In this document: piece after piece, positions 14,472-58,625 of the stretch
How the letters are laid out: each line of letters begins with the position of its first letter
Numbering within the stretch: the first letter of the stretch is position 1
Origin: Cliona cf. orientalis
Taxonomy: Eukaryota > Porifera > Demospongiae > Clionaida > Clionaidae
Assembly: GCA_963930775.1 (NCBI GenBank)
Contig: OZ005699.1
Span: 4,299,501-4,363,500, forward strand
Direction of reading: 5' to 3'
DNA length: 64,000 bases
Position numbers and translations under genes: made by a program
Notes under the pieces: model-generated
What the model was told of the DNA's origin: nothing
Seen by the model: only the letters and a program-made list of their open reading frames with translations
The model's database searches: none

Positions 14472-14784
14472 TTATATAGAGTCATCGTTAAGATCAACTT
14501 TTTCTTCATCTCCTTCCACTTTTGTGATGGTTTCATCTGCTTCTGTGGGTTGAGCAGCAGCAAAAGTAGGATTGTCAAACCCAACACATTCATAGTCATT
14601 GGATGATGCGGCAGCTGGAAGTACATCTGCTTCCATGGCTTTCTTTTCTGCCACTGGGGACTCATCTCGATCTCTCTGTGTAGCACTTGCTGTATTTCTC
14701 CTGAGAGGTAAGGGGGGTGGGGGTGCTGCTTCATAGCGGTCATGCAGTTCAAGTTGACCACCTTGGACATGATGATCACCATGC
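14472..14784 (-). other. Cytoplasmic tail exon of the giant receptor
   Basis: The last exon joins in phase (AG|G) after RRYEF. It has a proline patch [10 protein letters not shown] that fits a class II SH3-ligand pattern (PxxPxR), then [11 protein letters not shown], which contains a YxxV site and an NPxF site of the kind bound by PTB or clathrin-adaptor proteins. The C terminus is acidic ([12 protein letters not shown]). These motifs suggest endocytosis or signalling coupling; that is inference. Confidence 0.75.
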
Positions 14785-17700
14785 CTGTAAAACAATCAAT
14801 TATCAAAGTTCAACAGATAATATTACACTCCAAAGATAATATTATTATCATAATTATTGTTATACCTGAATTCATATCTCCTTCCTTTGTTGTGGCGGCG
14901 GTTGAAAATTTGAATGGCAATAATGACAATCAAAATCAGAACAACTGCTCCAGCTATGGCACCAACTATCGGTGCAACAATGTTCAATGTTGATGAGCTA
15001 CTTTCATCCACCTTTGGACCAGAAGTTGTGGACTCGATAGAAGTTGAAGACGGGCATATAGGATCACTGAGAGACTGCAGGAGAACTTGACACATAGCAT
15101 CAATGTTCAGGCTAACTCCTCCTACTGCCACTTTAGCTGTCTTACTCGTGACCCACTCCTGAAGGATGGATATGAACTCTGTATTACTAACAGCTGTTGT
15201 ACTGCTTAGTGTGGCTCTAAAGATGACATCATCTGAAATTTGTGGATCACAAGATAGTTGTGCAGCTGTGATGTAGGCTGCACTGACAGAACACTGGCAG
15301 CTCCGTTGTAACTCAGAGGCTACTTCTCCCGAGATGGATTGAAGTTTATCAACTGTGTCTCTAAGCTGTAGTACATAGAGAAGCATCAGTATCATTCCAA
15401 ATGCTTAGATAATGTACACCTACCCTCCATGTATTGCAGCTAACTACTCCTTGCATTCTCAACTGTAAGATAGAGCTGGGTGGAGCTGTGATAAAAAGTG
15501 AGCATTAATTTGGTGATAAAAAACAGAAAAGGATGCTACCAGATGTTTACTTACCATTAACTGTGATGGGAGGACTGCTAATTCCTTGTCCTACTGCTGT
15601 GCTTGCACTGACTGTAATTGAGTATGAGTTTATGAATCCCAAACCACCAATGACTTTGTAAGAATCCTCGGGTTGAGCAAACTCCAGCATCACCTCTTTT
15701 CTTCGACGGGACTCTAGAGTATCATATGCCACTGTGTAACCTGTGACCACCCCTCTGGCTTCCTCCAATGACAGCTTAACCCATGTGATGTTCATATGAG
15801 TGACATTCAGACGACTGCCATCCACATTTTTAGGAGCAGAGTTGGGGGCTGAATGATGTTATATATCACGCAGTGTATTCTTAAACTCTATTATGCATTT
15901 GACTCACTTCCTTCCTCTGTGAATATCCAGTTGCTAGTAAGAGGACCAAACCCAGCTGAAGTGCTTGCTTTTATTGAGACATTGTAGGGAATGAATTTGT
16001 CTAATAAGAAACAAACATTAATTTTAATACTGGCATCATTGGTGATATTTTATTTACTGAGATTGGGCACCACAATAGAATTCTGATCTCCAGGGATGCT
16101 TGCTTGGAAAATAGTGTCAGTACTAGTCTCGACTTGCATGCTGTAGACCTGAATAGCTCCATTAGCTGGCTCAGGCTCACTCCATGAAATCTGCAGGACT
16201 GTAGCTGAAATCTTGGTGAAGCTCAATGCAGCAATAGGACCAGGAACTGTGTTAAAGATAGTCACAATCAAACATGCAAGCATAAATTTTGAAAGAGAAA
16301 TAACATTATTTAGTTACCATCATCTGGTGTAGTGATAAGTTGAAATGCTGGCGGTCCACTTCCACCAGCAGTAGAAGCATACACACTACAGTTGTACAGT
16401 GAGCCAGCACTGAACCCAGTGATAGTGTAGGGACCTGTGCCTGTGTATGTTGATGGGAGGTTCAACACAGATTCATCTGGTTGGCAGGTAAGGGTGTAAG
16501 ATGTGATAACTCCATTTTGTGTTTCCGCTGTTGGAGGGTTCCATGAAAAACTTAAAGAGTATGGACTAACAATAGTAGCTGAAAATTCTGTTGGAGGGCT
16601 GCTGGGGCCTACAATTTAAGACAATCATATCATAGTAACGAGGTGTGCCTGTTTGCTTACCAGCTTCAGAGGTCATGAACATCATAACTGCAGTTGTTGT
16701 CTCTACATATGTATTCACACTATGAAGTTGATAGTAGTAGACAGTGTTTGGAGTCAGTGCTTGTAAAGAAATTTCATAGGTTATATTAGAAGCAGAGATG
16801 TCAGCAATTGAGTTCAGGGAAGGGCTTCTCAGATCAAGCATTTCTCTAACAGTTCCATAGTAGATGGTATATTGTTCTGGAGTATAGGCTAGGTGATATA
16901 TCACCCACTGCACTGTGACTGAGCTAGAAGAAGTATTCACTATCTGCACAGCACTGGGCTGGGCTGGAGCTCTAGGTCCTATATTTAGAACCACAAGGTA
17001 GAACTATGACACAACTGCACACTACAAATTACCAGTAACCTACCTTCAATAGTTGCTACTCCAGAAGTGAAAGCAGAGATGTCCAACCCTCCTGGTACAG
17101 ATATTGTGACAGTACAGTAGTATGTATATGTCCCAATGGTAGGCCCATTCACAGTAAGTTCACTTGTGCTTTCAGGCATGGCAGTATTGAGATTAGCTAT
17201 TAAAACGGTATCTCCATTATCAGCTATAATGTTGCTTCCATTTCTCCACACAAATGTTTTCTCCAGAATCACATCTGCAGGAACATTTGCAATGCACCTC
17301 AGTGTGAAGGTGTTGTAGGGAAGGATGTCTAGAGCAGTAACAGCTGGTGGGCGCATTTCAGCCACAAGCGTTGGAACTGTCCATGTGCATACAATGGTAG
17401 TATTAATCGTTATTGTACATAGCTAGCTGGTAACTCACATATAGCACGTAGAGACACATTATTGGAAGAGGATCCACTATTCAGAACAAAACTAAGATCC
17501 ATAGCTGATTCAACAGCTACTTCACACATGTAGAGGCCATCATCACTATTTAGTTGCAAGGGGCTGAAGATCAACTGAGCTTGATACTGATTGGGAACAT
17601 TTGTTTGAATTGAATCTGATATCCTCCTCAGAGATGAGTCTTCAAGCAAAGCTCCATTCTTCCTCCACACTGAAGTTACAACAACCTCACTATCCACTGC

Positions 17701-20700
17701 ACTGCTTAGCTGGATGGTGCAGTTGAGCATAAGAAGACTCCCAGCATACACTGGAGCAGCTGGTGGTAACACTGATAGTGTAGGTGGGGGAACTACACAA
17801 CGAAAATGCAAATTGTACGTAATCAAAAATGCCATTTTGAATTTCTTACTTTGTACAGAAACGTTTGCTGTTCTTATAGTAGACTGTTGTACCGTTTGAT
17901 AGGGAGAGCTTACAGTTGCCTGGCAGGTATACGTTCCTCCATGGGAAGTCAAAAGTGGACTGAATTGTATGCTGTATGTGGTCAGTCTTGACGGATTTCC
18001 AATGATTGGTTGATTTCCAACTATTAGCTCCCCTCCAGTTGAAAGGATGTTCCCTTGAGGTGAGAGCCATCTAATCTGAGGTTCTGATGTCAGGCCATCA
18101 GGGGTAGTCACTCTGCAGAGAAGAGAGAATATTTGCCCTGCAACGGACATACCACTTGTGATGATGTTAATGTCAGGGGGAAGAACATCTGCAAGAAAAA
18201 AAAATACAGCAGTTATACTGTATTCCAAGTAATATCTAGAATCTAACCATATTCTCTTGCTCTTCCCATTGCTGGCTCACTCAGTGGACCTTCTCCGGCA
18301 TCAGTGCTGGCAGATACCTGCACTATGACAAGCTGGTAAGGTTGTAAGTTGGTAATCGTGTAATTTGTAGTGGATGCATCAGATTGCAGTACTGCTATAG
18401 GAGATCCATCTGAATAGTTAATATAAAGACTATAGCTGGTAATGATGCCATTTGGAGTTGATGGCATGATCCATGTGACAAGTACAGAAGATGGACTGCT
18501 TCCTGCTACCTGGACATTCACAGGAGAGTCTCCTGGTACTGTAAGGTATTATAATCTTATGATGGTATGGCTGTATCTTAAAATGTAGCGTTTACCATCA
18601 CTAGCTGTAGTGAAGTTCAACATGGCACCAGGACCATCACCTCCGCTAGTAGTAGCAAAAACACTACAGATATAGAATGAATAGGGATGTAGAGCTTCAA
18701 ATGTGGTGGTAAGGCTAGTGGTTGTGGTAGCATTGACCGGAACACCATCGCTGTCACTACAACCAACTGTATATGATGTGATGATGCCATTTCTTCCATC
18801 TTCATTGGGTTGATCCCAAGACAATGTGACACTCCTAGACCCTATGCTCATAACCGAAAAGGAGTCTGGTTGTACTGTGGGTGCTATGAAGTATAAAAAC
18901 GAAGTGTATTATCAATCATGGCATTTGGTTGGTACATCTAACAAAATACCTCCTTCAGTAGTTTGGAATGTTTCAATAGCAGTCTCAGTTGTTGTGAAAG
19001 AGTTGCTGGCATCAATTCTGTAGTAGTACTGAGTGAAGGGATGGAGGCCAGTGATGGTTATTGAGTATGCCATATTGGTGCTAGTGAGATTTGTGGCTCC
19101 TTCTACAGCATCACTTCTCTGATCAAGGGTGTCATTGCTCAAACCATACACAATAAAGTAGCTCTCAGGTGTATATGCAGTTGCTGTCACTATCCAGTTA
19201 ATAGTTGCTTGCACTGCACCCACTGTGCTGCTAAGAATGATAGCCACATTTGGAGCAGTGGGACCTACAGAGAGATAGATAGTAATACTGCATACCTCAG
19301 GTTTAGTCATAGGAATAGCGACTCAAATGCATTGCCATTACTATACTGACCTCTGATGGTAACTGTTGCACTCTGATTACTCATCACTGTGTTGGATTCA
19401 GGAACACTGACTGAGGCAATGCAAGTATAAACTCCTGAGCTCACAGTTGTGGCAGAATTGACTGTGAGTGTGCTAGACTTCTCTGCACCACGACTGACCT
19501 CCTCCACCGAAATGGATATACCAGCAATGCTATTATCCAATTGCATCTCATTGTGGTACCAGCTTAGGTCAAGCGCTGGAAGAATACTGCCTGGTTTCCT
19601 AGCCATACACACCAGAGTGAAAGTGTTGAACGGATCAACATCAAGACCGGAATACAACAATGGTGAAACAGTAGTAGTTATTAATGGATCTGTGACATGA
19701 ATAAGAATGACAGAGTAATAAAAACTATGTTTCCATGGTATCACCTACCTATCACAGTGAATGTGAATATTGCAGTCCTTGTTACATTTGTGATGTAACC
19801 TGTGGCTTCAGTTGGGTAGAGAGTAGCTGTGCACATGTAGTTGCCACTGTCAGCTGTACTGCTAAGTGTATCATACTGAAGTATTGCTTGATAGCGGGAA
19901 TCACCCATCATGACCGGCTGCAATACTCTTCTACGAACAGTTCCATTCACATTCATTCCGTTAATCAACCACATCACTTCCACAGCAACAGCAGTATCAA
20001 CAGTGTCATCAAAGTCTATTGTACATCTTAGCTCTGCAGGCATTCCAGCAATGTTGGCATCAGACTGAGGGCCACTTATTTCAAGGTATGGTGATGGAAC
20101 TGCAAAAAATAGTTTATTAAGTGAAAATACTGGAACTTCCTATTATCTATTACTTTGCACAGTAATGTCAAGTGGCACAGAGTTCATCTGTTGCACTGAG
20201 AGCTCCACAATTGAAATTGATGTAGTACAAAAGTATTGTCCACTATGAGATGTAAAGAGTGGGTTAAACATCAGTGCCAGTGATGTGTTAGAGCCAGACA
20301 TCAGTGAAGTGTCTGACTGTAGAGGATTTCCTTCAGGATCAGTCCAAGAGGTAGCCACCACTACACTGTCACTCAAGCCAGCAACAACAGTACTAGTGCA
20401 TGTTACAGTGAAATTCTCTCCAGCAAGGGAGCTTCCCCCACTGACAATTGAAATCATGGGCGCTGGTAATGCTGATGGAAAAGCATAATGTATGCACTCT
20501 AATTACTGCAATTTATCATCGATACAGTACTTACCTTCAATTGTTACAGCAATTTGACGAGTGGCACCAGCGAATTGCACAAACTGACTAGACATGATGA
20601 CTGGCTGACAACTATATTGTCCACTGTCCATAGTGTCACTAACAGGACTAATGTAGACTGTTGTTTGGAAAGCCGATGGTCTAATTGCAGAGGCTGCTGA

Positions 20701-23700
20701 GATATTAATACGGCTGCCATTGGTGATCACTTCTCCTCCTCTACTCCAGATACTGTTCAACTCCACTGCAGTATCTACAAAACTTGTCAGTTGAAATAAG
20801 CAGGCTAGCTGCAGGCTTGTTCCAGTATAGAGAGGTCGATTGGGAAGGCCACTGATGCTTACAACAGGAGCTGGAACTATAATGAGAATAATATTATAAT
20901 ATTTTGCTTATTATGACTGTAGATACAATTAGTATTCCCACCTAGGAATAGACCTACCTTGAGCAATTATATCTTGGAGAGCTAAAACAGTGTACATCAA
21001 GTCACTTGATACTAGCTCTCCTTGGCATGTGTACTGCCCAGCATTAGAAGTGTACAAAGCAGAAAAGCGAACACTTATCATTGTTGTAGCTCCAAAAGAT
21101 ATAGGAACTCCTACAGTCACACTTCCATTGCTTGTCAGTTGTGTTCCATTGGGCCCAATCCACTGAATAACTATGTTTCCAGTTGCATTATTGACCCTTG
21201 TCACAGAACATATCAATGTAAGAGGCTCTCCAACAATTGAGCTGCCTTCAGCACTCACAGACCCCAGCAGAACTGCATCATGAGATAATTCATAAATTCT
21301 AATCACCTCCTTAAGGTGACCATTAAAATTTTTGTGGATACTATTATGTTTAATATCACCTGCTAAATTAATTATGCACTATAAATTGACCATTTCCGAG
21401 TACAAATCGCAAGATTCAGTACTTATAAAAGGAAAAATCACAGTATGTTGCAAATATTAACTGTGGCTGCTTAAAATCTATTCCTCAGAACTTTTTTATC
21501 CTAGCAAAACCCTGTAATCTACTATAGATGCTAGTTACTATCATCATCCCATTACAATGTTATACCTGGCTGAGGGGTCAGTAGATTGTGAATCACACTT
21601 GAATTTGTTCCATTGATGTTTGTTGCAATCACTTTGTAGTAATAGCGCGTATTTGATTGAAGATTCCTCAGAGTTACTGAGTAGACTTGACTAATAGCCA
21701 TTATGTCAGTGGAGCCAACTACTACTTCACTTGTATAGTTCAGCATAGTACGGTCCGTCCCATAAGTTACTGTGTAAGTCTCTGGAGTGTAGGCTACTAC
21801 TGGTACAAGCCACTCTATCACTGCAATTTCTGAGCTCAGTGTTGTGTGCACAACATCAATTGGTTGCACTGGAGCTGACGAACCTAAAGTAGACATTATC
21901 GATAAGGCAACATTATTGTACTTTGAAATTTACACAATCTTACCTTTGACTATAACTTCAGCTGTCTGTGAGTATGAGATCACTGGATCTCCAGGCACGC
22001 GAAGACTACCACTGCATGTGTATCTCCACCTACCAGCTGTCATTGCATACACTGAGAGTTGGCTAGTACTTGCCGAGTTCTGTAGGCCATTGTTGGTGAT
22101 GTTTATGTTGGTTTCATCATGACTCAGAGGCTGAACCACTTCAGAAGGAGAGGTTTGTCTCCAGATAATGGTCTTTGGTATGGTTACAGTTGATGGTTGA
22201 GTCACATTACAGTTGATTAAAATGAGATTGTAGGGAGAAACATCAAGCACAGTTGAAGTGGTAGGGTTTATATTAATGACCAAAGTAGGACCTAATAAGT
22301 ACAGTGAGACGAGATAAAATCTTAAAATGACCAAATATTATAATATTTACACCTGATAATTATGTTGAATAAGTGAATTGGATCAACAATTCTTACTTTG
22401 AGGAGTAACAGCCTCCATGTTAGAGTGAACAATCCTCTGCACGTACAATAATGATGGGCTAGTATCAACCACCACTCGACAGGTATATGTTCCAGTATCT
22501 GAAGTGACGCTGAGGGTACTGAAATCCACACTGGCTAGATAAAGATGTGAAGACATTGACTGCTGTGATACATTTGAAATGGACACACGGTCATCACTTC
22601 TGAGTGTTACTCCTGATTTCACCCACTCAACATCCACTAGATATGGAACATCAAGTGCAGAGTCAACCTCAATTGTACACCTCAGTGATAAGCCACTTCC
22701 GGAATAAAATGGACCACTCTCAGGGACTGTGGAAATTTCAATCATTGGACGTGGAACTAATGGGGAAGGAAAGAGAATTATTATCATCAGCAACTCACTT
22801 CCAGCAAAGCATGGGAGTTACTGGGTAAGTTACCACTTTAGGGTTACCAATAGCATTATACAACTAGATCTCTGTAGAGCACATACCCCATGCGCTGCAT
22901 CTGCATCCTGCAGTGCATCTGTCTGCACAGAGTTGAGAGCTATGGCACTATAAGCGTTCGCTTGTTGACGACCTTTACCTACATACTACTGTAAATCGCG
23001 AATATTTCGTGTCTAAAATATTTCATGCGATAATTTTTCGTGTTAAATAATTTTCGGACAAACGACCCTGTACCGCATTGTCGTTAATATTGCGCATGTA
23101 TTTCGTGCGTTTAATTTTCACACAAGCCATGCTATCCGAAATTTTTTAACATCGAAATATTCGCGATTTACGGTATGTTACGTTGTGTGCGTGAGCAGAA
23201 AGCACAAGAGGTACGGTTAATAGGCGTGACCAATAAAAACGCAGTTTTGTGATGCTTATCAAACGATGTGAAGCGTAATGAAGCAAATTTTTTAACAGTT
23301 TCAACAGTTGAGTTGTGCTTACGAGTCGCTCAGGTCCCTAGATCTCGAGATCTGGTGATTTTTGTGCTGATGGACAGAACTGATCATATGCTGTACATGT
23401 GCATGCGGGGTAAATATTGATAATGACAATCTCTCACTTTGAACTATGACAGTAGATGTTGCAGTTGAATTCAGAGGTAGAGATAGAATAGAGGATGTAA
23501 TAAGAGACACAAGGCACATATATACTCCACTATGTGATGTCTGAAGCGGATCAAATTCCAAGGAGGCAGAATAGATTGTTGTGCTTTCAGCATTTGTGCA
23601 GTTAGTTTGACCACTGATCTCCATACCATTGGGATTACGCCAGGTGATCTCAGGCACAACTGACAGAGCATCTTGCTGTGTCACACTGCAGGAAATGACA

Positions 23701-41700: not shown

Positions 41701-44700
41701 TTTTCATCTGACATGAATTATCATAGATATTCTACCTGGGCAATTCAGTCTAGTGCTAATCATGATTGATGCTTGTGTGCCGTTTAGCTTAGCTCTCCAG
41801 ATTCTGTTGTTGTTATCATCTGTCCAAAACATATCATACCTCCTGGATGTGAAAATCGAACTCAGCATCAATCTTATGCAATCATGATGCAAACCTATAA
41901 TCAAAGTCAATTCCACGTGGTTGCCCTCCAGTGTAGAGAGTCACTATGCGCCTCCCATCCAAATCAACACGTCGAACATAAGGAGTTATTTGGGTAAACA
42001 GAAGACGAGGAGGGGCTATGGGGAATGCAGTGTGTACAAGAGACTTGGTTGTACAAGTTACTACTAACCAATGCATTCTGTCTGATTGGTATTTATGACA
42101 AAGCCTGTTGGACAAGAACAGTTGGAGCGAGTTGGACTTGCTGCACTAATGAGACATAAGGATATGCAGCTTCTGTTACTGCAAGGGTTTGCAACTGAAA
42201 GCAACAATAAATAGGTTAAGACTGCTCCAACTATGCATGCAATAATTATGTCAAACTAACCAAGTGGCTGCCTCTCCTCAGTAACAACATGAATACCATT
42301 AGGATTCCCACCAAGAGATGAAGATGTGATTGTGGTAATAGATGCAGGTGACGCTACTAAGATGGAATAGATGCGATCATAATACCAGTCAGTCCAGTAG
42401 AGTCTCCCTGCATGGTAAGTGACACCCCATGGATCACGAAGACTTGTCCGCAGTGTAACTCTATTGGAGCCAGTGGCTGAGGATCTCTCAACCCTATTAT
42501 TGGAGTAGTCAACCCAGTAGATGGTCTGGTTTTGATAGTCCAGTGTCAAGCCATAGACATTGGACAGCCCATTGCTGTGCAGAACAGTCCTGGAATTTCC
42601 ATCCATAGTTGATCTCTCTATTCTGTTTGTTCCAGCATCAGTCCAATACATCCAGCTGCATTGAAATGAAAATTTAATAGGTTACTCCATCTGTGCAGTG
42701 AATGCATAATACTTACCCTGTTGTAGGATCAACAACTATGGCATATGGTTCAGTGAGGTCCACATCAAACAGCACCCTTCGCACTCTGGTTACAGGATCA
42801 TACACCTCAATGTCATCATCACAGTAATCAGTCCAATAAAGCTTTTGGTTGATCCAGTCCCATGCCAGCCCACCTGTACAGTGACAAAGGCAATCACTTC
42901 GACTGCTCATGTATATTTTGTGAAGAGGTATGCGTTGTGCTTACCAACACAAGGTATACCGGTGTTTACTAATATCACTGGATTTGATCCATCCAGTTCA
43001 GCTCTCCAGATTCTGTCAGCACTAACATCAGACCAAAATAGAAAATTGTTCCTGTGGGAGTATCAAAGTTATAAGTGATACACAATGGCTCAAGCGACAT
43101 TTCCACCTGTAGTCATAGTCGACAGCAAACGGATTGCCACTAGAATACAACGATACACTGTTAGTTCCATCCACATCAATACGTCGGATATAGGGCTGGC
43201 TCAGTGTAAACAAGAGACCCAATGGAGCTGCAGAATATATTACAGCAATCATTAAATCATTGTAGTTACTCCCATTCACACAGAATATACCTATGCAGTC
43301 GCTCATGTTTGTGTCCAATACAAGGCCAGGAGGACAAGCACATTTGTAGCCTTCCGGACGGGTAGAGCTCAATAGACAAATATGGCTACAATTATTACCC
43401 AGGCAATCATTTGATGCTGCATGGAAAGACAAAAAAATTGCAAAGCAGTGTATTTCACGCTATGCTTGAGATACTAAACTCACCAGGTGGTTGCCTTTCT
43501 TTGGTGACTACATGTATACCATACGGATCTTGTCCAAAAGAGCCCGTCACTTGAGAAACAGCAGTAGGAGAGTTTATAGAGAGAGTGTAAATCCTGTTAC
43601 CACTCCAATCAGTCCAGTATAACCTTCCAGCAAAATACGTTATTGCAAAAGGATCTGTAATTCCAGAAGATGTTAGCACTACACGGCTTGTGCCATTTGC
43701 AAATGATTTTTCAATCCGATTGTTGGAATAATCAGCCCAATAAAGCACTTGGTTGTCGTAATCCAGTGTGATTCCATAGACATTACTGAGACCTCCACTG
43801 TGAAGGGTGATCCTGGAACTCCCATCCATCGATGCCTTCTCTATTCTATCTCTACCAACATCTGTCCAGTAGAGAACCCTGTATACATATCATTCATGAA
43901 TGATGCGTCATAAGTTTCAAGTGGTGTGTAATACTAGTGATTCCGTGCATTATCTGCTTACTTGGTAGTGGGATCAACAACAATGGCATGGGGTTCAATC
44001 AATCCTGTGTTGAATAGTACTGCTCTATAGCCACTTGTAGGGTCATACACCTCAATATCATCTTGGCAATGATCTGTCCAGTACAATTTTTCACTTATCC
44101 AGTCCCAGGCTAATCCATCTACATAAAGCATCGCACAACTGATGTCATGCATATGAGCTAATCTTTCAATCATATTATAACGTTAACGGGGACAACATAC
44201 CTGCACAACCTAAGCCTGAAGTCACCAAATTGGTGTAAGATGCAGATGTTGTTTCAACTCCAAGACCTCTTACAATCCGATCATTACTGTAGTCCACCCA
44301 GAATATATACCCTTGCCTTTAGCAAAATGATAAATCAGTTTGATACATCATGATTTTCATGCATGCAAACATTGAGCTTACTGGAAATCAAAATCTAGTG
44401 CACGAGGATAGGAAGCAGTGTAAAGGGTAACTTGATTCTGTCCATCAGTGTTTACACGTCGAACAGTGTTTGAGTATACAGAGAATAACAATCGTGGAGG
44501 AGCTACAAGATAAATTAATTACATATTATAATAAATAGTATGAATCCAGAAGCCTCTACTTACGTTTGCAGTGAGTCTGATTTTCGGTCAGAACATAGTC
44601 ATCGGGACAAGCACAACTGAATCTTGAGGTAGATACTGAACTCAACAGACACAAATGACTGCAGTTACCATTATCTTCAGCACAGGGATTAGGAACTACA

Positions 44701-47700
44701 TGTTGTCAAGCAAGAAACAATAACAACAGTATGGGACAATACAAGACGTACAATTTACCTCCAAATTGCAGATCTTTATCGATCACTTGAATACCATAGG
44801 GATCGCTTCCAATAGACAGCAGCGATGTTACTCTGCTTGGTGAGCTAGAGAGAGTGGAGTAGATACCATTGTAGCTATAGTCACTCCAGTAGAGCGTTCC
44901 TTCAAAGAAGGTCATAGCGAAAGGATCACGAATATTGGTAGTGAGAAGTCTTCGATTGGAGCCATCGGTATTGGAGCTCTCAAGTTTATTTAGAGCATAG
45001 TCAGCCCAGTATAGAGTTTGGGTTGCATAGTCTATCGTTAGTGCATATGGTGTCTGCAGATTGGTAATATGAAGAGCAGTTCGACTGCTTCCATCCATGG
45101 AAGCTCTCTCAATTCTCCTGGACCCTGTATCACTCCAGTAGAGCCACCTACCAGAAAATTCCATCATAATAGTATACAATAATAATTATCATAAATATTA
45201 TTATTATGAACGTACCCAGTACCAGGGTCAACTACAATGGAATATGGAGAGGTTCCAGTTGTAAGAAGTACTCTCCTATAATTGGAAACTGGGTCATATA
45301 CTTCAATCTCATCTTGACAGTAATCAGTCCAATAGAGTTTTTCATTTATCCAGTCCCAGGCCAGACCCTCTGCACAATAAGCAAAGCAAAGCATGATGTC
45401 CATTCAGCTGGATTACTGCAAGACAGCAAATATAGCAATCTCACCTGAACACTGAATTCCTGATCTGAGTAAAACTGTCACTTGTGATCCATTCAAAAAA
45501 CTTCTGTACAGTCTATCATTTCCAACATCCATCCAGAATACGTACTGAGTCCTTCAAGAGAATAAATTACAGTATTTTACAGTGCTATCTTGAATCAGTA
45601 GCGTCCTTTCGATGGTAAAATTTCTTACTTATAGTCAAAAGCCAGAGCACGAGGGCGGCCACCACGATAGACAGTCACACGCTCACTGCCATCAAGTCTG
45701 GAACGCTGAATGTAGTTATAGCTTCTAGTGTAGTATGAAAACAGCAGGTAGGGGGGCACTGCAAGTTGACAGAGTATGATAAATAGCCAATGGTATTATT
45801 TCGTCTAAGACTTGTGATCCATGAGGCTCACCTCTACATATATTGGGTTCATCTGAGTTGATGAGTCCATCAGGGCATGCACAGCTGTAGCCCTCTGGAG
45901 CAGTGGAGCTCAGCAAACACAGATGACTACAATTTCCATTGTTTACAGCGCATGTGTTGGGTACTGCAACAAGGAAGGAGAAGAACAACAAAGCATACCA
46001 TCAAGCACCCCAGAAAAATTCAACACACTACCACAACCTAATCACATAAGTTAACTGACCTTCACGCTGCTTTTCTGGTGATATTACATGAATGCCATAA
46101 ATATCTGAGCCAAGTGAACTTCCAAAGTATGCAACACTGTTTGGAGAACTAACGGGAGTACTCAGCAGCCTGTTGTATGAGTGGTCACCCCAGTACAGGA
46201 CTCCATCATAGTAATCGAGAAAGTATGGATCTGAAATCATTCTGTTGGTCAGAGTTGAACGGTTAGTGCCATCAACATTTGACTTCTCAAGGACATTACG
46301 ACTGTAGTCCATCCAGTAGAGGGTCTGGGTGTCAATATCAAGTGTTAGCCCGTAAGGAGTGCTCAAGCTGGTAGAGTGAAGCGCTATTCGTGCACTCCCA
46401 TCCATTGATGCTCGTTCAATCTTTGGAACTGATCCAGTGTCTGTCCAGTACATTTGTCTGCAGCGAAATTGAGCAATATCTCAACATTTAGCTAGGGCCT
46501 ATTAGACTCTATAATAATGACAATGGAATCCTACAGGTTCACCTGGTACTAGGATCTAGCACGATGCTTCTTGGTGCACTGTTTGAGCCAGTCCTTATTA
46601 GCACTTTACGATCTCCGGTTGCTGGATCAAAAACTTCAAGATCATCAGCACAGTTATCAGTCCAGTAGAGCTTCTCATTTGTCCAATCCCAAGCCAGACC
46701 ATCTGTCAACATAATATGAACTGTGCAATCATAGGAGACAGATATTCAATGATATACCTGCGCAAGATAGACCAGTGTTCACAATTATCATTGAATTCGA
46801 GCCATTGATTTGAGCTCTATAGATTCTGTCACTGTTGACATCAGTCCAAAACATATGCTCATTTCTAAACACCATACAAACATAAGTATCTATGTATGAA
46901 TTAAAAACTATAGTTGGATATTCACTTAAAGTCAAAAGCCAGTGCCCTTGGGTAGCCACCAGAATAAACACGTGTTCGTCCTCCACCATCAATGTTCACC
47001 TTTTCAACAAGTGATGAATAGCGAGTGTAGAGCAAGTACGGTGTCACTATAGTATTGTAACAGACAGATATAACTATTCCAGCTAAAGGTTACAGATAAC
47101 CACATGACTATAAAATATTATGGGAATAATAATTATTATTATATCTTAATACTAATTGTAGACTTACCATCTGGGGTTAGTTTATACACTAGGTTTGTCC
47201 ACACACTTGTTGTTGTATTAAGACAGGAAACAGAAGCTACATTCGTGGTTCCACTAAAGGGATGATTCTCAAACCAAGTACCACCAGCATTGAAACCCAC
47301 AGTTGCATTGCCATGCCAGCTTACAGCTCCACATTGATAGATGAATAGTGCATAACTTTCTGTCCCATCCGTGATCACAATTCCTTGGTATGAGTTGGTC
47401 TGAAAGTGTATAGCAAAAAAAGTTACCTCCATGTAGTAAGCAGCTGGAAGAGCTTACTCTATCAGCACTGGATCCGTATTCAGCCACATTGTCCCACTCT
47501 GCCACTAACATCCACAATCCTTCAAAATTTGTTTCAGTTCGTTGCTGAATATACTGGTTTACCACTGACAAAAGCTCAGTGCTAGTGTGAACTTCATAGG
47601 ATATTTGACCAAATGGGCGAGGATCATGATCTGCCCAGAATGGAGCAACAATGTAGCGGTAGGAACTAGAATTAGGAAATAGAACTGGGTTGAAAAAGTC

Positions 47701-50700
47701 AACACTCCTGCCAAAAGAAAGCAGCCCATTGCTAGAGACCTGTGGATGATAGCATAATATTGACAGTCATAGTCGAAAAATATATATATAACTGACTTAC
47801 AGACAGTGAAGTAGAAGCTGTGCTACCAAATGAGAAAGGTGTTGAAATAGTAACATTGGCTGACTTGGAATCAAGGGCAGACATTAGAGGGACTTGATTA
47901 ACACCGGTAGTACTTCCAAGTTCAACAAAACTGATATAAGATCCATCTAAAGGTGGCATAAATTTAGCGTATGTATTAAACCCAATTGGCCATGATACTT
48001 ACAAAGCTGATATACAACATTGCTCCAATCACTCCTTGGTGAATTTAAGCAAGCTATGCTATGAGCATTGCTATCTCTGCTGAGTTTGTGGTTCCTGTAG
48101 TATCTTCCATCAGCATTAACGCCAATACCCGCACCTCCAGACCACCGCATCTGGTGACAGTTGTATGTAAACACAGCAAAAGACATTTGTCCATCTGTGA
48201 TGACAACTGCTTGATAGGTATTGGTCTAAATATTGGATACACAAGATAAGCAACCACAATACATGTAAAATTTGGAGCTAGCACAAACTTACAATGCCTA
48301 AGTTTCCAAGGTACTCTGGTACACTGCTCCACTCTGCAGCCAGCATCCATGTTCCATTGAACTTAACTTGCTCTTGCTGGCTGATGTAGGTGCTCACAAA
48401 GGTCAGAGAGTCACTCTGGCCAGTATACACCCAGTAGGATACTGCCCCTACACCCCTTCTGATGTCGTTGTCACTCCAAAATGGAGCAACAAGGAAATTA
48501 TAGAAGCTTGTTCCAGGAAACAAATGTGGAGAGTGATATGGAAATGGTCTTGCAAAGGATAGTATGCCATTTGTGGAAACCTGTGGAACTATAAACTTTA
48601 AACCAGCACAGCCCTGCAGTATGGTGAGGCCTTACATAAATAGTGGTTTGGTTGCTGTTACCAAATGGAAATCCTCCAGGTATTGGTATAGAAGTAGAAA
48701 TTGAATCTTCAGTATTAGATGGCAACATAGTTCCACTTCCATCCAGAGACAAGAATGGTAGCTCCCGTAAATCTGAACAAAAGATGAAAGTACAAAACAT
48801 GATAGGACACTTTATGCACATGATTGTCATCAGCTTACGCAGCTGGTAGACAACATTGCTCCAAATAGTCCTGGGTGAATTTAGGCATGCAATGGCGTTG
48901 GCACTGTTGCCACTGAGTTCATGAATGTCATAGAGCTGATCATTCACTTTGAATCCAATTACTGCATCCCCTGACCACTGCAGGCTCCCACAGCGATATG
49001 TGAAGACTGCAAAGGACTGATATCCATTGGTTATCACAATCCCTTGAAACGTATTTGTCTACAGGAAAAAGATTGTGCTATGAAAGTGTTCATGTACACT
49101 TTAAAGCTCTGTGCTACTTACAAGACTAGTGGACTGTCCAGACTGAGGTACACTGTTCCACTCAGCCACTAACATCCAAATGCCATTGAATTTAGACTGC
49201 AGGCTCTTCTGGACATATCTATTGACTCTGCTGAGCAAGGTGGGACTGGTGGTGGTGTTATGTACTTCATACGACACCCTCCCCACCCCAGTGGCAATGT
49301 TAATGTTGCTCTCAAAGGGAGCAATAATGAAGTTGGAGGTACTGGAGTCGGAAGAGAGATTGGGGCAACAGGTCACTCCTCTTCCAAAGGACAAGTACCC
49401 ATCATTGCTAACCTGTGTGGTATCAATATTCACATGTTGTGTATTTGTTATGACTAGTGCTGCGCATGAATACAAGACATGCAAAATTGATGACCATGCA
49501 TGCTACGGCATATCCTCTCATTTACTTGCACAAACTGACATTGAAAAGTTGAGAATAGCAAACCATCATTGCATTTGCATGCAATATCATGGTCCAGGTG
49601 CTGATCCAGAAATTTTGCATGGAAGGTGGCTGATGAGGTGGCTACCCATAGTAAACTATACTGGTGCAAGTGGGGTGGCTGGTTAATAATGGTGGACATC
49701 TCCTATACTACCTTGTATAAAAGAACTAGTGAAGGGTGGGTGGCTAGCCACCCTATCCACCCTCCCCTGGATCAGCCCCTGTGGTCCGTTCTTGTCTTAA
49801 TTAACCTAGAGTCGGTTGTTTAAGCTGCTGGTAGCCATGCTATGCTACACATGTAAGTCTGTATTACATTGATCAAAGTACTGTCCATCAATTTAATGAG
49901 CTCACATACACGTAGGTCACCATAATATCTCATCCCGGATCCCCAGACTATACCCTCTGTGAGCGAAAACAGATCTGGCAAACATGGATGCTTTCCTTAG
50001 TTTTATAGGTGGAGTCATGTAGTATGGTTTGTCATAGTGGCAGAACAAACCTGTATTCTGATTGGTCAAACATAAGGATCAATTCAGTAAACTGCATAGG
50101 CAAGAGCAGATCTACACTGTGATTAGTCCAAAAAGTCACATGTCCTTAACAGAGCTGAGCTATGATCTGATTGAAATACTCAAATTCCCTTCAGGATCAG
50201 TGTGTCCATGTGCACCACACCCCTTTTCCCTCATAGAGGGTGACCACCACAAGGTAATATGCATAATATCAATATTCAATTATTCATCAAGCCTGCACCT
50301 GCAGTGCTACAATGTCATACTCGTGATTTTCATTTTGATTATGATTTACTACGTCACTGGTATGTGTGTACAGGCTATAGGAGGCATGAATTAACCTATT
50401 AATATCCCAGAGTTGCAGGCTAGCAATGCTAAATTAAATATGGGTTACGTACAGCTAGTTACAGCTTGCAAATAACCACTAGCTGGTATAGACTTCATTT
50501 TCTCTCGTACCACTGGAGGAAAGTGTGCATGGCAACACAACTCCACGATAATTATGTGTCCACACCCATAACATAGCTACACCCAGTGGCTTCCTATAAA
50601 AGAGTCATTGCAGTATAATTCTACAATGTCATGCACAAACATTAATGATGGATGACCACGTGGTACCAATTCATTTGAGTGATTCCAATCAGCAGGAAGC

Positions 50701-52101
50701 TGTATGGTATTACTACCATGGAGCCTCTCTAGTGGTACCACATGGTAATCCATCATTAATAATGTATCACAGGGACTATCACCATTACAACCAACCAAAA
50801 AGCCATCAACTGTACTATATCACTGTATCAATAACGTGATATTAACCACACCCCTTACAAATAAGTAGTATATCTTGCTGGTACTCATACAGCCTAATAA
50901 CATTGGCTTGCTCTCGGCCATACATCATACCGGTAAAAACTTTTTAAAGAGTACCTACTAATTGTACTCGAAGTGTGTCAGTCAGTGATCATCGACCGAG
51001 GGCAAAGCCAATAAACTGTCAAGACTGCTCGAGTACTATAATCGATTTGTAAAACACAATTGAGATGCAAACCACAGCTAGCTACGTTATAGATAAACTA
51101 TGTACTACTGAGGTTATCACGAGGTGGTTATGCAAGTAGACACCTCGGCTCCACCTCTGTGTCTATATTTATTTGCATAACCACCTCGTGTATATAATAT
51201 TATGATAGCATATAGTTTGTCTGGCTTGTAGCTACTACAGCTGTAGTTGAACTACCATCTGTTGCTGTGTAACCGTAGTATAACTGCCCTAATTGGCAGT
51301 TAGACTACACCTTGGTGATTATAAACACTAGGCGATGCACCTATGTACTGTAGTATAAAAGGTGATACACAATTTGCAGGAGTTATTCGTCTCGTGGGAA
51401 AGCTTATGTTTGGCAAGCAATTTTACTGTAGCTATCAGGCAACAACATACTCATTGCAGTTATGATTTCATTGTGATTGTATCAACAGTTTTGGCTACCA
51501 TGCTGTAATAATTACCAGGGGAAGAGTGATTCACTAGCAACAACTGTGGTACTAATACAAGGCGTTGCAACTACATGTTGACATCAAATCCAGAAAGAGA
51601 TATTTACACTACTACAGTACTGTGCATGTTGCACACACTCTCTAACACAACTACAAGCTATTATATTGCACAAGGTGGGATAATTACTTTGGGTGACACA
51701 TCTGATTTTGCAAGTTTAGTGGGGGCATTCAGAGGTCCTTTAGGAACGTCATTCGCATGTATTCTATGCACTCACATAAACAGCTGTCTGTGTTGAGTTT
51801 CCAAATCCAAATCCAAGTGGGATGTTGATTGCACCAGACAGTCCATCATTCAGAACAGGCAAGACCACACTGTCCACTCCAGCTGTCCTGCCCAATTCAA
51901 GAAATGGAAGATTACCTTTAAAAAAAACAGAAGAAAAGAACCAATTATTATATCTGCTACACTTGCAATAATATCATTACTTGACTACACACAGTAGCAA
52001 TACACAAGTTCTTCCAATTCCACTACATTGAGCTTACTCTGTGCTACAGAGCTTGAAGCAATAGCAAGCAACACTGCAGCAGCTAGTAATCCCGTCTTCA
52101 T
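14472..52101 (-). CDS. Giant NIDO-YWTD/EGF-SRCR-Ig-FN3 transmembrane receptor-like protein
   Basis: A single-pass surface protein. The start is the ATG at 52101, which opens a hydrophobic signal peptide; the stop is TAA at 14472-14474. Order from the N terminus: 3 NIDO units, 7 YWTD propellers each with an EGF, 1 LDLa, 3 NIDO units (the first with an SRCR inside), about 30 Ig with one FN3, a mixed block of 8 FN3 and 8 Ig, a juxtamembrane domain, TM and tail. I estimate about 8,500 residues. Introns are mostly 50-150 bp. Where I checked boundaries (exon 1, NIDO 1, SRCR, TM, tail) splice phases agree. I found no second signal-peptide exon or internal terminal exon, so I treat it as one gene, but a split into two genes, for example near 34.5 kb, is not excluded. 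Modules imply adhesion or ligand binding; the ligand is unknown. I do not recognise a named orthologue. Confidence 0.75.
14866..15486 (-). other. Juxtamembrane cysteine domain, TM helix
   Basis: Two exons (about 15421-15486 and 14866-15365). The first reads [17 protein letters not shown]; the second has a helix, C-Q-C, 'LSCDP', a strand segment [11 protein letters not shown], '[10 protein letters not shown]' and ends near DPIC. It resembles a small SEA-like alpha/beta domain that I know from other sponge surface proteins, but I cannot name a family. A Ser/Thr/Glu stalk follows, then the TM segment [20 protein letters not shown] and a stop-transfer RRHNKGRR. Confidence 0.7.
15555..21884 (-). 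other. Mixed FN3/Ig membrane-proximal block of the giant receptor
   Basis: From N to C: FN3 (21567-21884), five Ig (about 19353-21270), three FN3 (18248-19264), three Ig (17045-18190), four FN3 (15555-16980). FN3 domains show the expected W near the B strand and Y-x-(V/I)-x-V-x-A in the F strand, for example [28 protein letters not shown]. One FN3 is split over two exons (16058-16250 and about 15910-16003). The order Ig type E, F, G, then an FN3 starting 'GPxAPxxPxxV' recurs three to four times and so is itself a duplicated cassette. Confidence 0.78.
21945..34505 (-). other. Ig-like array: about 30 domains with one FN3
   Basis: Consecutive one-exon domains carry the C...W...(D/S)xGxYxC Ig signature. 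Five recurring types can be told apart. A has W(S/N)STCTGNCF; B has [18 protein letters not shown] and ends in GIYLRGF-like; C has CTxxGSPAxxVxWTKDG; D has GExxxxTCxxDLxxxxIxWxYN; E has AGxxYxxxCxV...PLxxSHxGxYxC. Order along the protein is A-B-C-D-E, two further Ig types, FN3, E, then A-B-C-D-E four times, then two more Ig. Type A exons recur at about 30722, 28915, 27075 and 25212. The single FN3 is at about 31415-31733 (FN3 '[10 protein letters not shown]'). Confidence 0.8.
22989..23173. mobile_element. MITE in receptor intron, TA duplication
   Basis: A 185-bp foldback between two Ig exons. The ends are CTGTAAATCGCGAATATTTCG-like on the left and the complement of CCGTAAATCGCGAATATTTC on the right, one mismatch at base 2. 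TA at 22987-22988 and 23174-23175. The right terminus reads CCGTA, as in the other TA-flanked elements of this window. Confidence 0.78.
34690..38092 (-). other. NIDO block II: three units, the first interrupted by an SRCR domain
   Basis: Units have the same three-exon plan as block I. Leading exons are near 37945-38092, 36541-36684 and 35702-35845 ('FLPFLDLG', 'GFPYLTLG'). Unit 4 runs from [12 protein letters not shown] to WNSVPSPG, is then broken by the SRCR exons, and resumes with [12 protein letters not shown] at about 36980. Units 5 and 6 are uninterrupted. A 430-bp intron with AT-rich repeats (about 35279-35701) lies in unit 6. Confidence 0.85.
37080..37560 (-). other. SRCR domain nested inside NIDO unit 4
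   Basis: The first SRCR exon reads [20 protein letters not shown], then '[23 protein letters not shown]' in outline (GxWGTICDD signature and VACxQLGF). After a GG|G phase-2 intron the second exon gives [12 protein letters not shown], '[22 protein letters not shown]'. This is a complete scavenger-receptor cysteine-rich domain. It enters at a phase-1 junction (CCA G|) and leaves at a phase-1 junction (AAT A|), so the module is symmetric and could be shuffled without shifting the frame. Confidence 0.88.
38176..38287 (-). other. Single LDLa module
   Basis: One exon codes '[16 protein letters not shown]', then '[18 protein letters not shown]', with six cysteines and the calcium-binding D..DCGDNSDE signature of the LDL receptor class A fold. 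It directly follows the seventh EGF and precedes NIDO block II. Confidence 0.9.
38353..47047 (-). other. Seven YWTD beta-propellers, each followed by an EGF module
   Basis: Each propeller has six LDLR class-B blades; in the first they read LLYTRY, MFWTDV, LYWTDN, MYWTDT, LYWMDY, LYWGDH. Every propeller is followed by one exon coding a six-cysteine EGF of the type NGNCSHxCLLSS...CxCPDG. EGF exons lie near 45834-45964, 44572-44697, 43290-43419, 42063-42194, 40878-41008, 39632-39768 and 38353-38488. Spacing is 1.19-1.28 kb, and exon boundaries fall at equivalent places, so the unit spread by tandem duplication. LRP-type receptors use the same propeller-EGF pairing to bind ligands and release them on acidification; that function is inference here, since the many LDLa repeats of LRPs are missing. 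Confidence 0.88.
49595..49781. mobile_element. hAT-like miniature element, 5-bp duplication
   Basis: Inverted ends CAGGTGCTGATCCAG and CTGGATCAGCCCCTG (one mismatch), flanked by TGGTC on both sides (49590-49594 and 49782-49786). The CAGG terminus and short duplication suggest a hAT-related non-autonomous element. Confidence 0.55.
50645..50760. repeat. Foldback in receptor intron 2
   Basis: ATTAATGATGGATGACCACG and GTGGTACCA on the left are answered by TGGTACCAC and ATGGTAATCCATCATTAAT on the right, with two mismatches. The short loop has no coding signal. Probably a MITE; no duplication was recognised. Confidence 0.55.
51118..51190. repeat. Perfect 18-bp-arm hairpin
   Basis: CACGAGGTGGTTATGCAA (51118-51135) is exactly complementary to 51173-51190. 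Inside, GTAGACAC and GTGTCTAT extend the stem imperfectly, so the loop is short. Probable miniature element. Confidence 0.65.
52038..52101 (-). other. Exon 1 of the giant receptor: signal peptide
   Basis: The ATG is followed by [20 protein letters not shown], a classic signal peptide with a basic n-region, alanine/leucine core and AxA-like cleavage end. The exon stops in phase 1 before GTAAGC. The next exon (51776-51915) resumes in phase with [12 protein letters not shown], the segment that precedes each NIDO domain in this protein. Confidence 0.85.
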
Positions 52102-54290: not shown

Positions 54291-55047
54291 TCTCCAAGAG
54301 GGGCGAAATATGACTTTATGCAAATCGGATATTATACAAATATACTGTATAATTATACATAATGTATACATGTAATCTATAAAGATGTATAATTAATATG
54401 CAAATTATGCATTTTATACACCTCCAAGAGGGTGAGATATGACTTTATGCAAATTAGACATTATACAAATATACTATATATAATTATACATAGTGTATAC
54501 ATGTAATCTAAAGATGTATAATTATGCAAATTATGCATTTTATACACCTCCAAGAGGGTGAGATATGACTTTATGCAAATTAGACATTATACAAATATAC
54601 TGTATAATTATACATAGTGTATAAATGTAATCTAAAGATGTATAATTATGCAAATTATGCATTTTATACACCTTTGAGAGGGTGAGATATGACTTTATAC
54701 AAATTAGACATTATACAAATATACTATATAATTATATATAATGTATAAATATAATCTAAAGACGTATAGTTATGCAAATTATGCACTTTATACACCTCCA
54801 AGAGAGTGAGATATGACTTTATGCAAATTAGACGTTATACAAATATACTGTATAATTATACATAATGTATAAATGTAATCTAAAGACGTATATAGTTATG
54901 CAAATTATGCACTTTATACACCTCCAAGAGAGTGAGATATGACTTTATGCAAATTAGACGTTATACAAATATACTGTATAATTATACATAATGTATAAAT
55001 GTAAATCTAAAGACGTATAGTTATGCAAATTATGCACTTTATACACC
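54291..55047. repeat. Six tandem copies of a ~125-bp AT-rich unit
   Basis: Units begin CTCCAAGAG(G/A)G at 54291, 54421, 54547, 54671, 54795 and 54921, giving lengths of 130, 126, 124, 124, 126 and about 126 bp. Each reads on through ATATGACTTTATGCAAATTAGACATTATACAAATATACT-type sequence to GCAAATTATGCA(T/C)TTTATACA. The first copy is the most diverged. This is a local satellite array, without CRISPR-like spacers. Confidence 0.85.
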
Positions 55048-55565
55048 AAGGGAATCACAAAAGACTTAATATAGACTACAGTTATACAGTATAGTATATA
55101 ATATATTGTAGTAATAAGAGAAGCACACTACTCAAATAGACAAATTATGCTGGTCATATACGAATTTAAGCTTTATTATACAGTATATTATACATATAAT
55201 ATGTATAATTAAGTAATAAACCTTAATAGTATAATAATGTAAGAGTATAACTAGTATAAAGATCCATTACTGCACAGCTCTCCAAGTCTCAGTAGCCATT
55301 GCCCGAGTTTGTTGAACAGTGAAACTATTCTATTTGTTTTCGAAGCTACCTGACTGTCTTCTGTTCACGGAAAGCTGAAGCACTGATTGATTCAACTAGC
55401 CATGGTTCCGTGACTCAAGCCATCCGTCATCGGTTGTTTCTTTGCTGGTTTGTTTTTACTGTGCAACTCTCTTTCTGTTCGAAACTATTGTTGCTAGGTT
55501 AGAACGGTTGTTGCTATGCATGTAGACTATGGTGCGCGTGACTTTTAGCCAATCAGGTGGGATAT

Positions 55566-58045: not shown

Positions 58046-58625
58046 TTTTGGCTCAACCTACCCCGGCAGAAGACTGTGTGGAGAGATAGAACATCATCGT
58101 ATTATTATTATCATGATATATAGATATTAGGAATATAGCCACAGCATTATTGTTACTAGACCAGTTAACCAACCCCACCCCCCACCCCCTGGTATTTGTT
58201 TATCCAAGCTGCTGTTGATATAATCATGTGGTATGAGTGTAAGAAATTAGAGGGGGTACATACATGTACATCGGGGTGCAGATGTAATGGCGTGAGACAT
58301 CGGATAGTGACTAATTCAGATATTTCGCTGGGAGGATTTCTGGTACTGCTATCCAGGGTTATGATCTTATTGCTGTTAATACTTCTGTTGGCCTTTTTTG
58401 TCCACCTCACTAGCAGGTGTGACCTGGGGAACTTCCCCATCTTTACTGTTAGGCTTTTTATTACTAGATCTCACGGTTAGGCCATGTCCACCCCTGTAGG
58501 GGGTGTGACCTGGGGATTTTTTCCCCACACCTTTTACTTTGATAGGCATCCTACATGTACAAGCGTACGTATAGGTAGGGAGCGCGAGAGTGTCAGGGAA
58601 TGATCAAAATATTCTCTTATTGCAG

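What the first reader, a model, noticed from the sequence alone, without database searches (positions are those of the whole stretch)
14472..52101. Giant sponge receptor with an unusual NIDO-propeller-SRCR-Ig-FN3 architecture
Seen: one minus-strand exon series from a signal peptide (52101) to a TM segment and tail (14472) with six NIDO units, seven YWTD propeller-EGF units, one LDLa, one SRCR, about 38 Ig and 9 FN3. Known: nidogens combine one NIDO with EGFs and one propeller, LRPs combine propellers with many LDLa, and neither carries Ig arrays. Inference: a lineage-specific adhesion or recognition receptor, possibly for self/non-self or microbial contact. I know of no described protein with this order.
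Basis: partly seen in the sequence, partly recalled or inferred. Interest (0 to 1): 0.85.

Follow-up and report, generated by a model that had tools for sequence, protein, structure and literature searches.

The report
Giant three-copy sponge cell-surface receptor
The stretch most likely encodes one enormous sponge cell-surface protein of about 8,800 amino acids with an unusual domain order, and two more genes with the same order lie on other chromosomes, which indicates that the design is real, old and kept by selection.

Summary
A gene model gives one minus-strand gene, ATG 52101 to stop 14472: 109 exons, 8,812 aa, one signal peptide, one membrane helix, 6 NIDO, 7 LRP-type propeller-EGF units, 1 LDLa, 1 SRCR, 38 Ig and 9 FN3. 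The decisive evidence is new. The genome, matched to Cliona cf. orientalis by 11 chromosome lengths, holds two further copies on chromosomes 5 and 6: 102 of 103 domain units of the window gene recur in order in each, at 59-60% identity and dN/dS 0.15-0.16. The NIDO-to-Ig seam is an intron of only 68 and 56 bases there, so two adjacent genes are very unlikely. Purifying selection (103 of 103 units with dN/dS below 0.5 between the closest copies) argues against fast-evolving self/non-self recognition and favours a fixed, long-reach adhesion or matrix receptor. Transcription and function are untested. Partial precedent: Stylissa carteri (PMC4772301).

The parts
52038..52101 (-). Exon 1: start codon and signal peptide (an in-frame ATG also at 52119)
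   Evidence: a candidate signal-peptide exon of similar sequence in the chr5 paralogue at 7686983
47168..51915 (-). NIDO units 1-3, three exons each (A, B, C); intron of 2,363 bp inside NIDO 1
   Evidence: Pfam NIDO 6.5e-75, 3 stretches; exons
38355..47082 (-). Seven YWTD propellers, each followed by an LDLR-type EGF (28 propeller exons, 7 EGF exons; the third exon of propeller 3 probably starts at 44118)
   Evidence: Pfam Ldl_recept_b and FXa_inhibition in the parts submitted; propeller 5 + EGF matches LRP2/LRP4/LRP6 in PDB; exons
38175..38285 (-). Single LDLa module
   Evidence: Pfam Ldl_recept_a 1.6e-9; read in the chr5 and chr6 copies
36772..38090 (-). NIDO unit 4, split by an inserted SRCR between its B and C exons
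   Evidence: same order NIDOA-NIDOB-SRCR-SRCR-NIDOC in both paralogues
37146..37543 (-). SRCR domain, two exons (37543-37345, 37285-37146)
   Evidence: Pfam SRCR 3.7e-25; PDB CD163, DMBT1 and others; exon end corrected
37062..37087 (-). 26-nt micro-exon (TTSDPKIVQ) that returns the frame from phase 1 to phase 0 after the SRCR; it stands where the end of NIDO exon B would be
   Evidence: read by eye in the DNA of all three copies; ends of the other B exons
34691..36683 (-). NIDO units 5 and 6
   Evidence: Pfam NIDO
31785..34503 (-). Ig 1-7 (types B C D E A F G)
31414..31731 (-). FN3 1
21944..31354 (-). Ig 8-30: A, then the five-Ig cassette BCDEA four times, then F G
21566..21883 (-). FN3 2
19351..21272 (-). 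Ig 31-35 (A F A F G)
18248..19264 (-). FN3 3-5
17044..18188 (-). Ig 36-38 (A F G)
15555..16978 (-). FN3 6-9 (one split over two exons)
14979..15485 (-). Linker exon and cysteine-rich juxtamembrane domain without a convincing Pfam or PDB match
   Evidence: 91 matches genome-wide, these three genes included; alignment A1
14901..14969 (-). Single transmembrane helix (ends approximate)
   Evidence: highest hydropathy of the whole protein, 3.28 against 1.78 for the next
14472..14900 (-). Cytoplasmic tail (PPPPLP stretch, FDNPTF) and stop; its last exon has no other match in the genome

Best explanation
One gene of a three-gene family encodes a giant type I membrane protein. From outside inwards: a head of three NIDO domains, seven LRP-type propeller-EGF units, one LDLa and three more NIDO domains, one of which carries an SRCR in a loop; then a stalk of 38 Ig and 9 FN3 domains; then a cysteine-rich juxtamembrane domain, one membrane helix and a short tail. 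Shown here: the gene model, its order, three co-linear copies and long-standing purifying selection. Inferred: the stalk, very roughly 190 nm if fully extended at about 4 nm per domain (a recalled figure), holds the head far from the cell, where NIDO, propeller and SRCR surfaces bind a conserved partner in the sponge's matrix or on neighbouring cells, while the tails couple different copies to different intracellular partners (the last tail exon of the window gene matches nothing in the other two). I take it for a conserved adhesion or matrix-tether receptor rather than a polymorphic recognition receptor.
For: Single gene in the converged model. Two paralogues on other chromosomes with 102 of 103 window units in the same order; LDLa, which had no HMM, read in both. 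NIDO-to-Ig seam introns of 187, 68 and 56 bp. Protein identity 59.1, 59.6 and 78.1%; overall dN/dS 0.15, 0.16 and 0.19. 103 of 103 paired units with dN/dS below 0.5 between the chr5 and chr6 copies, two partial chr5 pieces being dropped first. In 7 exon families all 39 repeat positions group by position across the three genes, so the internal duplications are older than the gene copies. The window's last tail exon matches nothing else in the genome, while the chr5 and chr6 tails resemble each other by eye. Propeller nearest to LRP6/LRP2/LRP4, SRCR to CD163/DMBT1.
Against: No transcript or protein evidence. In 13 of 24 parameter settings the model was split. The paralogue models fell into 12 and 7 pieces at one setting and were single at the other, long introns being the likely cause. 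No signal peptide for the chr6 copy was found in the 4.3 kb searched. The chr5 copy has an in-frame stop in one FN3 and a frame break in one Ig, so it may be decaying. Constraint is not even: the juxtamembrane domain is the loosest class (dN/dS 0.49, 0.39, 0.26) and some Ig units near the membrane keep only 35-48% identity. Synonymous sites against the window gene are near or at saturation. No ligand is known; NIDO is not specific to nidogen (PMC10280926, passages). Pairwise dN/dS cannot exclude positive selection at single sites or polymorphism within the species.
Confidence: 0.5

Rival explanations
1. A receptor for microbes or algal symbionts: NIDO, propeller and SRCR surfaces bind microbial or dinoflagellate surface molecules and the tail signals or drives uptake.
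For: An SRCR of the CD163/DMBT1 type is present. SRCR domains are numerous in sponges and co-occur with LDLR and YWTD domains in Stylissa carteri (PMC4772301, passages). A nidogen-like gene was among those reported in the response of Dysidea avara to symbiont consortia (PMC11229196, passage). Symbiodiniaceae sequence was found in the sequenced Cliona sample (PMC12639293, passage).
Against: One SRCR among about 70 domains. No diversification seen between copies: all 103 units are under purifying selection. Three copies, not an expanded array.
Confidence: 0.2
2. A self/non-self (allorecognition) receptor.
For: Long Ig-FN3 ectodomain with one membrane helix, as in some allorecognition receptors (recalled).
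Against: Order conserved in three unlinked genes and purifying selection over nearly the whole length. No polymorphism data either way.
Confidence: 0.08
3. An LRP-like endocytic or scavenger receptor: seven LRP-type propellers and an LDLa bind soluble cargo, taken up through an NPxF-like tail motif.
For: The propeller tested matches LRP2, LRP4 and LRP6 best; FDNPTF in the window tail resembles the recalled LDLR motif.
Against: One LDLa only, against the many cargo-binding LDLa of LRPs. The motif is not seen in the chr6 tail. A stalk of 47 domains would be unusual for cargo uptake.
Confidence: 0.12
4. Two adjacent genes, an N-terminal NIDO-propeller protein and an Ig-FN3 receptor, wrongly joined by the model.
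For: Each half has a relative elsewhere: NIDO-propeller with FN3 and a membrane helix at chr15 5.517-5.543 Mb (the middle 10 kb not fetched), and Ig cassettes with the juxtamembrane domain at chr13 2.01 Mb. The model splits under 13 of 24 settings, though never at this seam.
Against: Seam introns of 56-187 bp and the same junction in all three copies. Only one membrane helix stands out in the whole model, and the only clear signal peptide is at the start.
Confidence: 0.03

Closest known systems
LRP2 (megalin), LRP4, LRP5/6 and LDLR
   Same: Tandem YWTD propellers, each followed by an LDLR-type EGF; single membrane helix. For propeller 5 + EGF, single-propeller LRP6 chain 7nam 206 bits, nidogen 1npe 110.5 bits
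   Different: One LDLa; NIDO domains; 38 Ig and 9 FN3
Nidogen (entactin)
   Same: NIDO plus EGF plus YWTD propeller
   Different: Six NIDO and seven propellers, the tested one closer to LRPs; membrane-anchored; Ig and FN3 arrays
SNED1 and other NIDO-FN3 proteins (recalled)
   Same: NIDO followed later by FN3
   Different: No propellers, SRCR or Ig array in SNED1, as recalled
Ig-FN3 adhesion receptors (Dscam, Sidekick, titin-like arrays; recalled)
   Same: Long Ig array followed by FN3 and one membrane helix; one symmetrical exon per Ig here
   Different: NIDO-propeller head; 38 Ig; unnamed juxtamembrane domain
Sponge SRCR proteins with LDLR, YWTD, Ig and FN3 partners (Stylissa carteri, PMC4772301, passages)
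   Same: Overlapping set of domains in sponges
   Different: The passages read do not give NIDO, this order, this size or membership of one protein
Halichondria panicea receptor repertoire (PMC8242945, section 13 with the Figure 1 legend)
   Same: NIDO, SRCR, FN3, Ig and LDLa are listed among domains of receptors
   Different: The legend does not say which domains share one protein, and the figure was not held

Membership tests
Nidogen | NIDO domain | tested here: met
   Pfam NIDO, 6 units
Nidogen | Propeller of nidogen type, one per protein | tested here: not met
   Seven propellers; for propeller 5, LRP6 chain 206 bits against nidogen 110.5 bits
Nidogen | Secreted, no membrane helix | tested here: not met
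   Clear membrane helix near the C-terminus
LDLR/LRP family | Propeller-EGF units of LDLR type | tested here: met
LDLR/LRP family | Clusters of LDLa repeats | tested here: not met
   One LDLa
LDLR/LRP family | NPxY-type endocytic tail motif | tested here: inconclusive
   FDNPTF in the window tail; not seen in the chr6 tail
Ig-superfamily adhesion receptor | Ig array, FN3, one membrane helix | tested here: met
Ig-superfamily adhesion receptor | Cell-cell binding activity | not testable with these tools
   Needs a binding assay
SRCR superfamily | SRCR domain | tested here: met
   Pfam 3.7e-25; PDB CD163/DMBT1
Polymorphic allorecognition receptor | Diversifying selection between copies | tested here: not met
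   dN/dS below 0.5 in 103 of 103 paired units between the chr5 and chr6 copies
Polymorphic allorecognition receptor | High polymorphism between individuals | not testable with these tools
   One genome only
Sponge aggregation factor | Calx-beta domains (and the Wreath domain, recalled) | tested here: not met
   No Calx-beta among the Pfam families of the 5,662 residues submitted or among the 25 families shown of 41 for the 47 Ig/FN3 exons; propellers 3-6 were not scanned with Pfam

The most novel reading that the evidence does not exclude
All 47 Ig/FN3 exons from 34503 to 16000 begin and end in phase 1, so any of them can be skipped without loss of frame, and a five-Ig cassette is repeated in tandem. 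The three genes could therefore make a large set of stalk isoforms by exon skipping: a Dscam-like splice-coded recognition or cell-spacing system in an animal without neurons, with a conserved NIDO-LRP-SRCR head and copy-specific tails.
Probability: 0.08. Interest if true: 0.88.

Novelty: new variant of a known kind. Interest (0 to 1): 0.62.

Why it matters
Nidogen itself is thought to have arisen later than the last common ancestor of animals (PMC10280926, passage), yet here NIDO, LRP-type propellers, SRCR and a huge Ig/FN3 stalk are united in one sponge receptor kept in three copies. It is a concrete, testable candidate for long-range cell or matrix attachment in a sponge, a case of a domain inserted inside another domain, and a lead to an unnamed juxtamembrane domain shared by dozens of loci in the genome. 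It also shows how sponge genes may have built adhesion receptors by exon shuffling.

Tried and rejected
First gene model over-split into 218 exons because short exons were cheap; discarded and retrained with a minimum exon length. Exons predicted inside the 2.4 kb intron of NIDO 1 and at 22978-22862 were dropped as unsupported. The SRCR end was corrected after comparing the three copies. The likely start of the third exon of propeller 3 (44118) was seen only at the end and is not in the 8,812-residue model.

Juxtamembrane domain: the best PDB matches of the profile lie in the membrane helix, apart from one weak partial match at E 0.71; Pfam gave no domain shared by most members, the commonest being PF22812 in 4 of 20 (best 2e-6); AlphaFold2 on the single window sequence gave mean pLDDT 41.5, not usable, so no fold search was made. 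A SEA-domain idea was considered and not tested further. NIDO unit 2 has no sequence match in PDB at E up to 1.

Synteny: 126 flanking ORFs of the window against the two fetched paralogue regions gave only short, scattered or repeat-like matches, so a larger segmental duplication was not supported; only part of the flanks was held.

Paper searches found no description of this architecture in the listings and in the passages opened; one search was on the species and on the genome. Supplementary files, most subscription journals, sponge protein databases and the Ensembl annotation were not available.
Full report
What was checked. The window lies at C11:4299501-4363500 of a 216,785,154-base genome. 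Eleven contig lengths returned (C1 37.50, C2 14.80, C4 11.51, C5 11.46, C6 11.33, C7 9.99, C8 9.97, C10 9.79, C13 8.93, C15 8.35, C19 7.22 Mb) equal the chromosome table of the demosponge Cliona cf. orientalis, odCliOrie1.1 (PMC12639293, passages read). The totals differ slightly (216.79 against 217.17 Mb; 149 contigs against 307 scaffolds). I take the species as identified by this match, not by a sequence comparison.

Gene model. A splice-aware Viterbi model trained on the window's own long frames and allowed to start several genes converged on one minus-strand gene from ATG 52101 to stop 14472. An in-frame ATG also lies at 52119. Curated and corrected at the SRCR it has 109 exons, 108 introns (median 63 bp, longest 2,363 bp) and 8,812 residues. 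About 15 residues of propeller 3 are probably still missing. The signal peptide is at the start, and one membrane helix stands out, hydropathy 3.28 against 1.78 for the next stretch. Under 24 settings one gene was kept in 11, two of which ran on to 14084. Five runs broke it in two, inside the intron of NIDO 1 or inside propeller 1. Eight runs with nearly free gene starts gave 6 to 17 pieces, cut mostly inside domains, two of them also just before the LDLa. None of the 24 broke at the NIDO-to-Ig seam.

Domains. Pfam on four pieces (5,662 of 8,799 residues; propellers 3-6 and 18 Ig units were not in them) found NIDO, Ldl_recept_b, FXa_inhibition, Ldl_recept_a, SRCR, Ig families and fn3. The 47 Ig and FN3 units scanned singly gave fn3 in 9, Ig_3 in 28, Ig_2 in 26 and ig in 24. 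A simple C-W-YxC pattern was met by 29 of 38 Ig exons, and all 38 have at least two cysteines. For propeller 5 with its EGF, a single-propeller LRP6 chain scores 206 bits and nidogen 110.5. The SRCR matches CD163, DMBT1 and relatives.

Two co-linear paralogues. NIDO and propeller searches of the genome (each scored only the best 150 candidates) showed clusters on other chromosomes. HMMs from window exons gave 0 matches in 3 shuffled windows and full sets on C6 (about 4,129,699 to 4,072,158, minus; 103 matches) and C5 (about 7,681,922 to 7,635,214, minus; 105 matches, two domains being broken in two). Of 103 units of the window gene, 102 pair in order with each copy; only the tail does not. The LDLa had no HMM; it was read in the same place in C5 and C6. 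Identities are 59.1% (C5), 59.6% (C6) and 78.1% (C5 to C6); dN/dS over all paired codons is 0.15, 0.16 and 0.19, with synonymous sites near or at saturation against the window gene. The juxtamembrane domain is the loosest class (0.49, 0.39, 0.26), and some Ig units near the membrane keep only 35-48% identity. Between C5 and C6 all 103 paired units, after two partial C5 pieces were dropped, are below 0.5, median 0.17, none above 1. In trees of 7 exon families, all 39 repeat positions group by position across the three genes; some supports inside the groups are low, and in one group (NIDO exon C of unit 4) the window sequence does not stand outside the other two. So the internal tandem duplications, among them the five-Ig cassette, are older than the gene duplications. 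A search with one Ig exon of type C (73 of 73 candidates scored) put its 15 best of 34 matches in these three genes, five each. With one FN3 exon (31 of 31 scored) the nine best and 12 of 21 matches lie in them, four each. The three best matches of the juxtamembrane domain are also theirs. I count three members in this assembly.

Why it is one gene. The NIDO-to-Ig seam is an intron of 187 bp here, 68 bp in C5 and 56 bp in C6, too short for a terminator plus a promoter, and it is the same in three unlinked loci. Against this: the paralogue models split into 12 (C5) and 7 (C6) pieces at one setting and were single at a stricter one. No signal peptide of C6 was found in the 4.3 kb searched, while C5 has a candidate at 7686983. 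C5 carries an in-frame stop in an FN3 and a frame break in an Ig, so that copy may be decaying, or the sequence may be wrong there.

A domain inside a domain. NIDO units are made of exons A, B and C, with a phase-0 border between B and C. In NIDO 4, exon B ends early in phase 1, two SRCR exons follow, and a 26-nt micro-exon (TTSDPKIVQ) brings the frame back to phase 0 before exon C; the same pieces can be read by eye in the DNA of C5 and C6. Its length and place fit the missing end of exon B. I infer that a phase 1-1 SRCR cassette was inserted by exon shuffling into a NIDO loop before the three genes split.

Juxtamembrane domain and tail. The exon 15365-14827 carries a cysteine-rich domain with 91 matches in the genome, these three genes included (145 of 145 candidates scored). 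In 20 aligned members, the window's and 19 of the other 90, three cysteines are invariant and two more, with one tryptophan, nearly so. Neither a PDB profile search nor Pfam gives it a convincing name; the single-sequence AlphaFold model is uninformative. The last tail exon of the window gene has no other match in the genome (3 of 3 candidates scored). The C5 and C6 tails resemble each other by eye and not the window's.

Where it came from. A chr15 locus has NIDO, propeller-EGF, FN3 and a membrane helix without Ig matches in the 20 kb fetched (5,526,001-5,536,000 not fetched). A chr13 locus has the B-C-D-E-A Ig cassette with a match to the juxtamembrane domain. The giants look like a fusion of these two kinds of receptor; this is inference.

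How it may work. Shown: architecture, three copies, constraint. Inferred: a long stalk presents a ligand-binding head. Constraint over nearly the whole length suits a fixed adhesive or matrix partner better than self/non-self recognition. Microbe binding and cargo uptake remain possible. Nothing here tests a ligand.

Comparison with what is known. It shares defining parts with nidogen, LRPs, Ig-FN3 adhesion receptors and SRCR proteins, but fails a defining feature of nidogen (secreted, one nidogen-type propeller) and of LRPs (LDLa clusters). Paper searches found no such order in the listings and passages seen. Closest in print: SRCR domains co-occurring with LDLR modules and YWTD only in Stylissa carteri among three sponges, and with Ig and FN3 in all three (PMC4772301, passages), and NIDO listed among receptor domains of Halichondria panicea (PMC8242945, passages and section 13 with its legend). 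A survey of 1,747 SRCR proteins in 29 animals does not use the word NIDO in its main text (PMC10855680, passages). I also saw passages of PMC11229196, PMC10280926 and PMC5395295; all other papers were seen as search listings only. I rate it a new variant of a known kind, namely mosaic adhesion receptors.

Noticed in passing
window 57026-61556, + strand: Three open frames: one without Pfam match (gag-like by its cysteines, my reading), one with reverse transcriptase (RVT_1, 2.4e-14) and one weakly like a tyrosine recombinase (Phage_integrase 0.008, below cut-off). It looks like a DIRS/Ngaro-type retrotransposon (recalled kind), in a stretch with higher G+C (0.47-0.50).
   Followed up: partly
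window 14979-15365 and 90 other places in the genome: A cysteine-rich domain just outside the membrane helix, shared by many loci, without a convincing Pfam or PDB match.
   Followed up: partly
G000:C5:7639583-7639885 (L031) and 7651164-7651443 (L033): The chr5 paralogue has an in-frame stop in an FN3 exon and a frame break in an Ig exon, although the rest is under constraint: recent decay, allele or sequencing error.
   Followed up: partly
G000:C15:5516640-5542771 (L038, L039): Alternating NIDO, propeller-EGF and NIDO units with near-identical repeats, then FN3 and a membrane helix: a separate NIDO-propeller locus, apparently in recent tandem expansion (middle 10 kb not fetched).
   Followed up: partly
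G000:C13:1992404-2016157 and C19:1676672-1715268: Clusters of matches to the same Ig type without NIDO matches nearby in the incomplete list; the 7 kb of chr13 read has the B-C-D-E-A cassette and the juxtamembrane domain.
   Followed up: partly
G000:C19 about 0.81-0.87 and 0.99-1.005 Mb: Further clusters of NIDO and propeller matches, not read.
   Followed up: no
G000 genome-wide, PF06119: At least 167 NIDO matches (150 of 204 candidates scored); six-frame matches, so exons are counted, not genes.
   Followed up: no
window 54543-55127, - strand: Short frames that match a tandemly repeated stretch near C5:7592100-7592800, probably a dispersed repeat.
   Followed up: no
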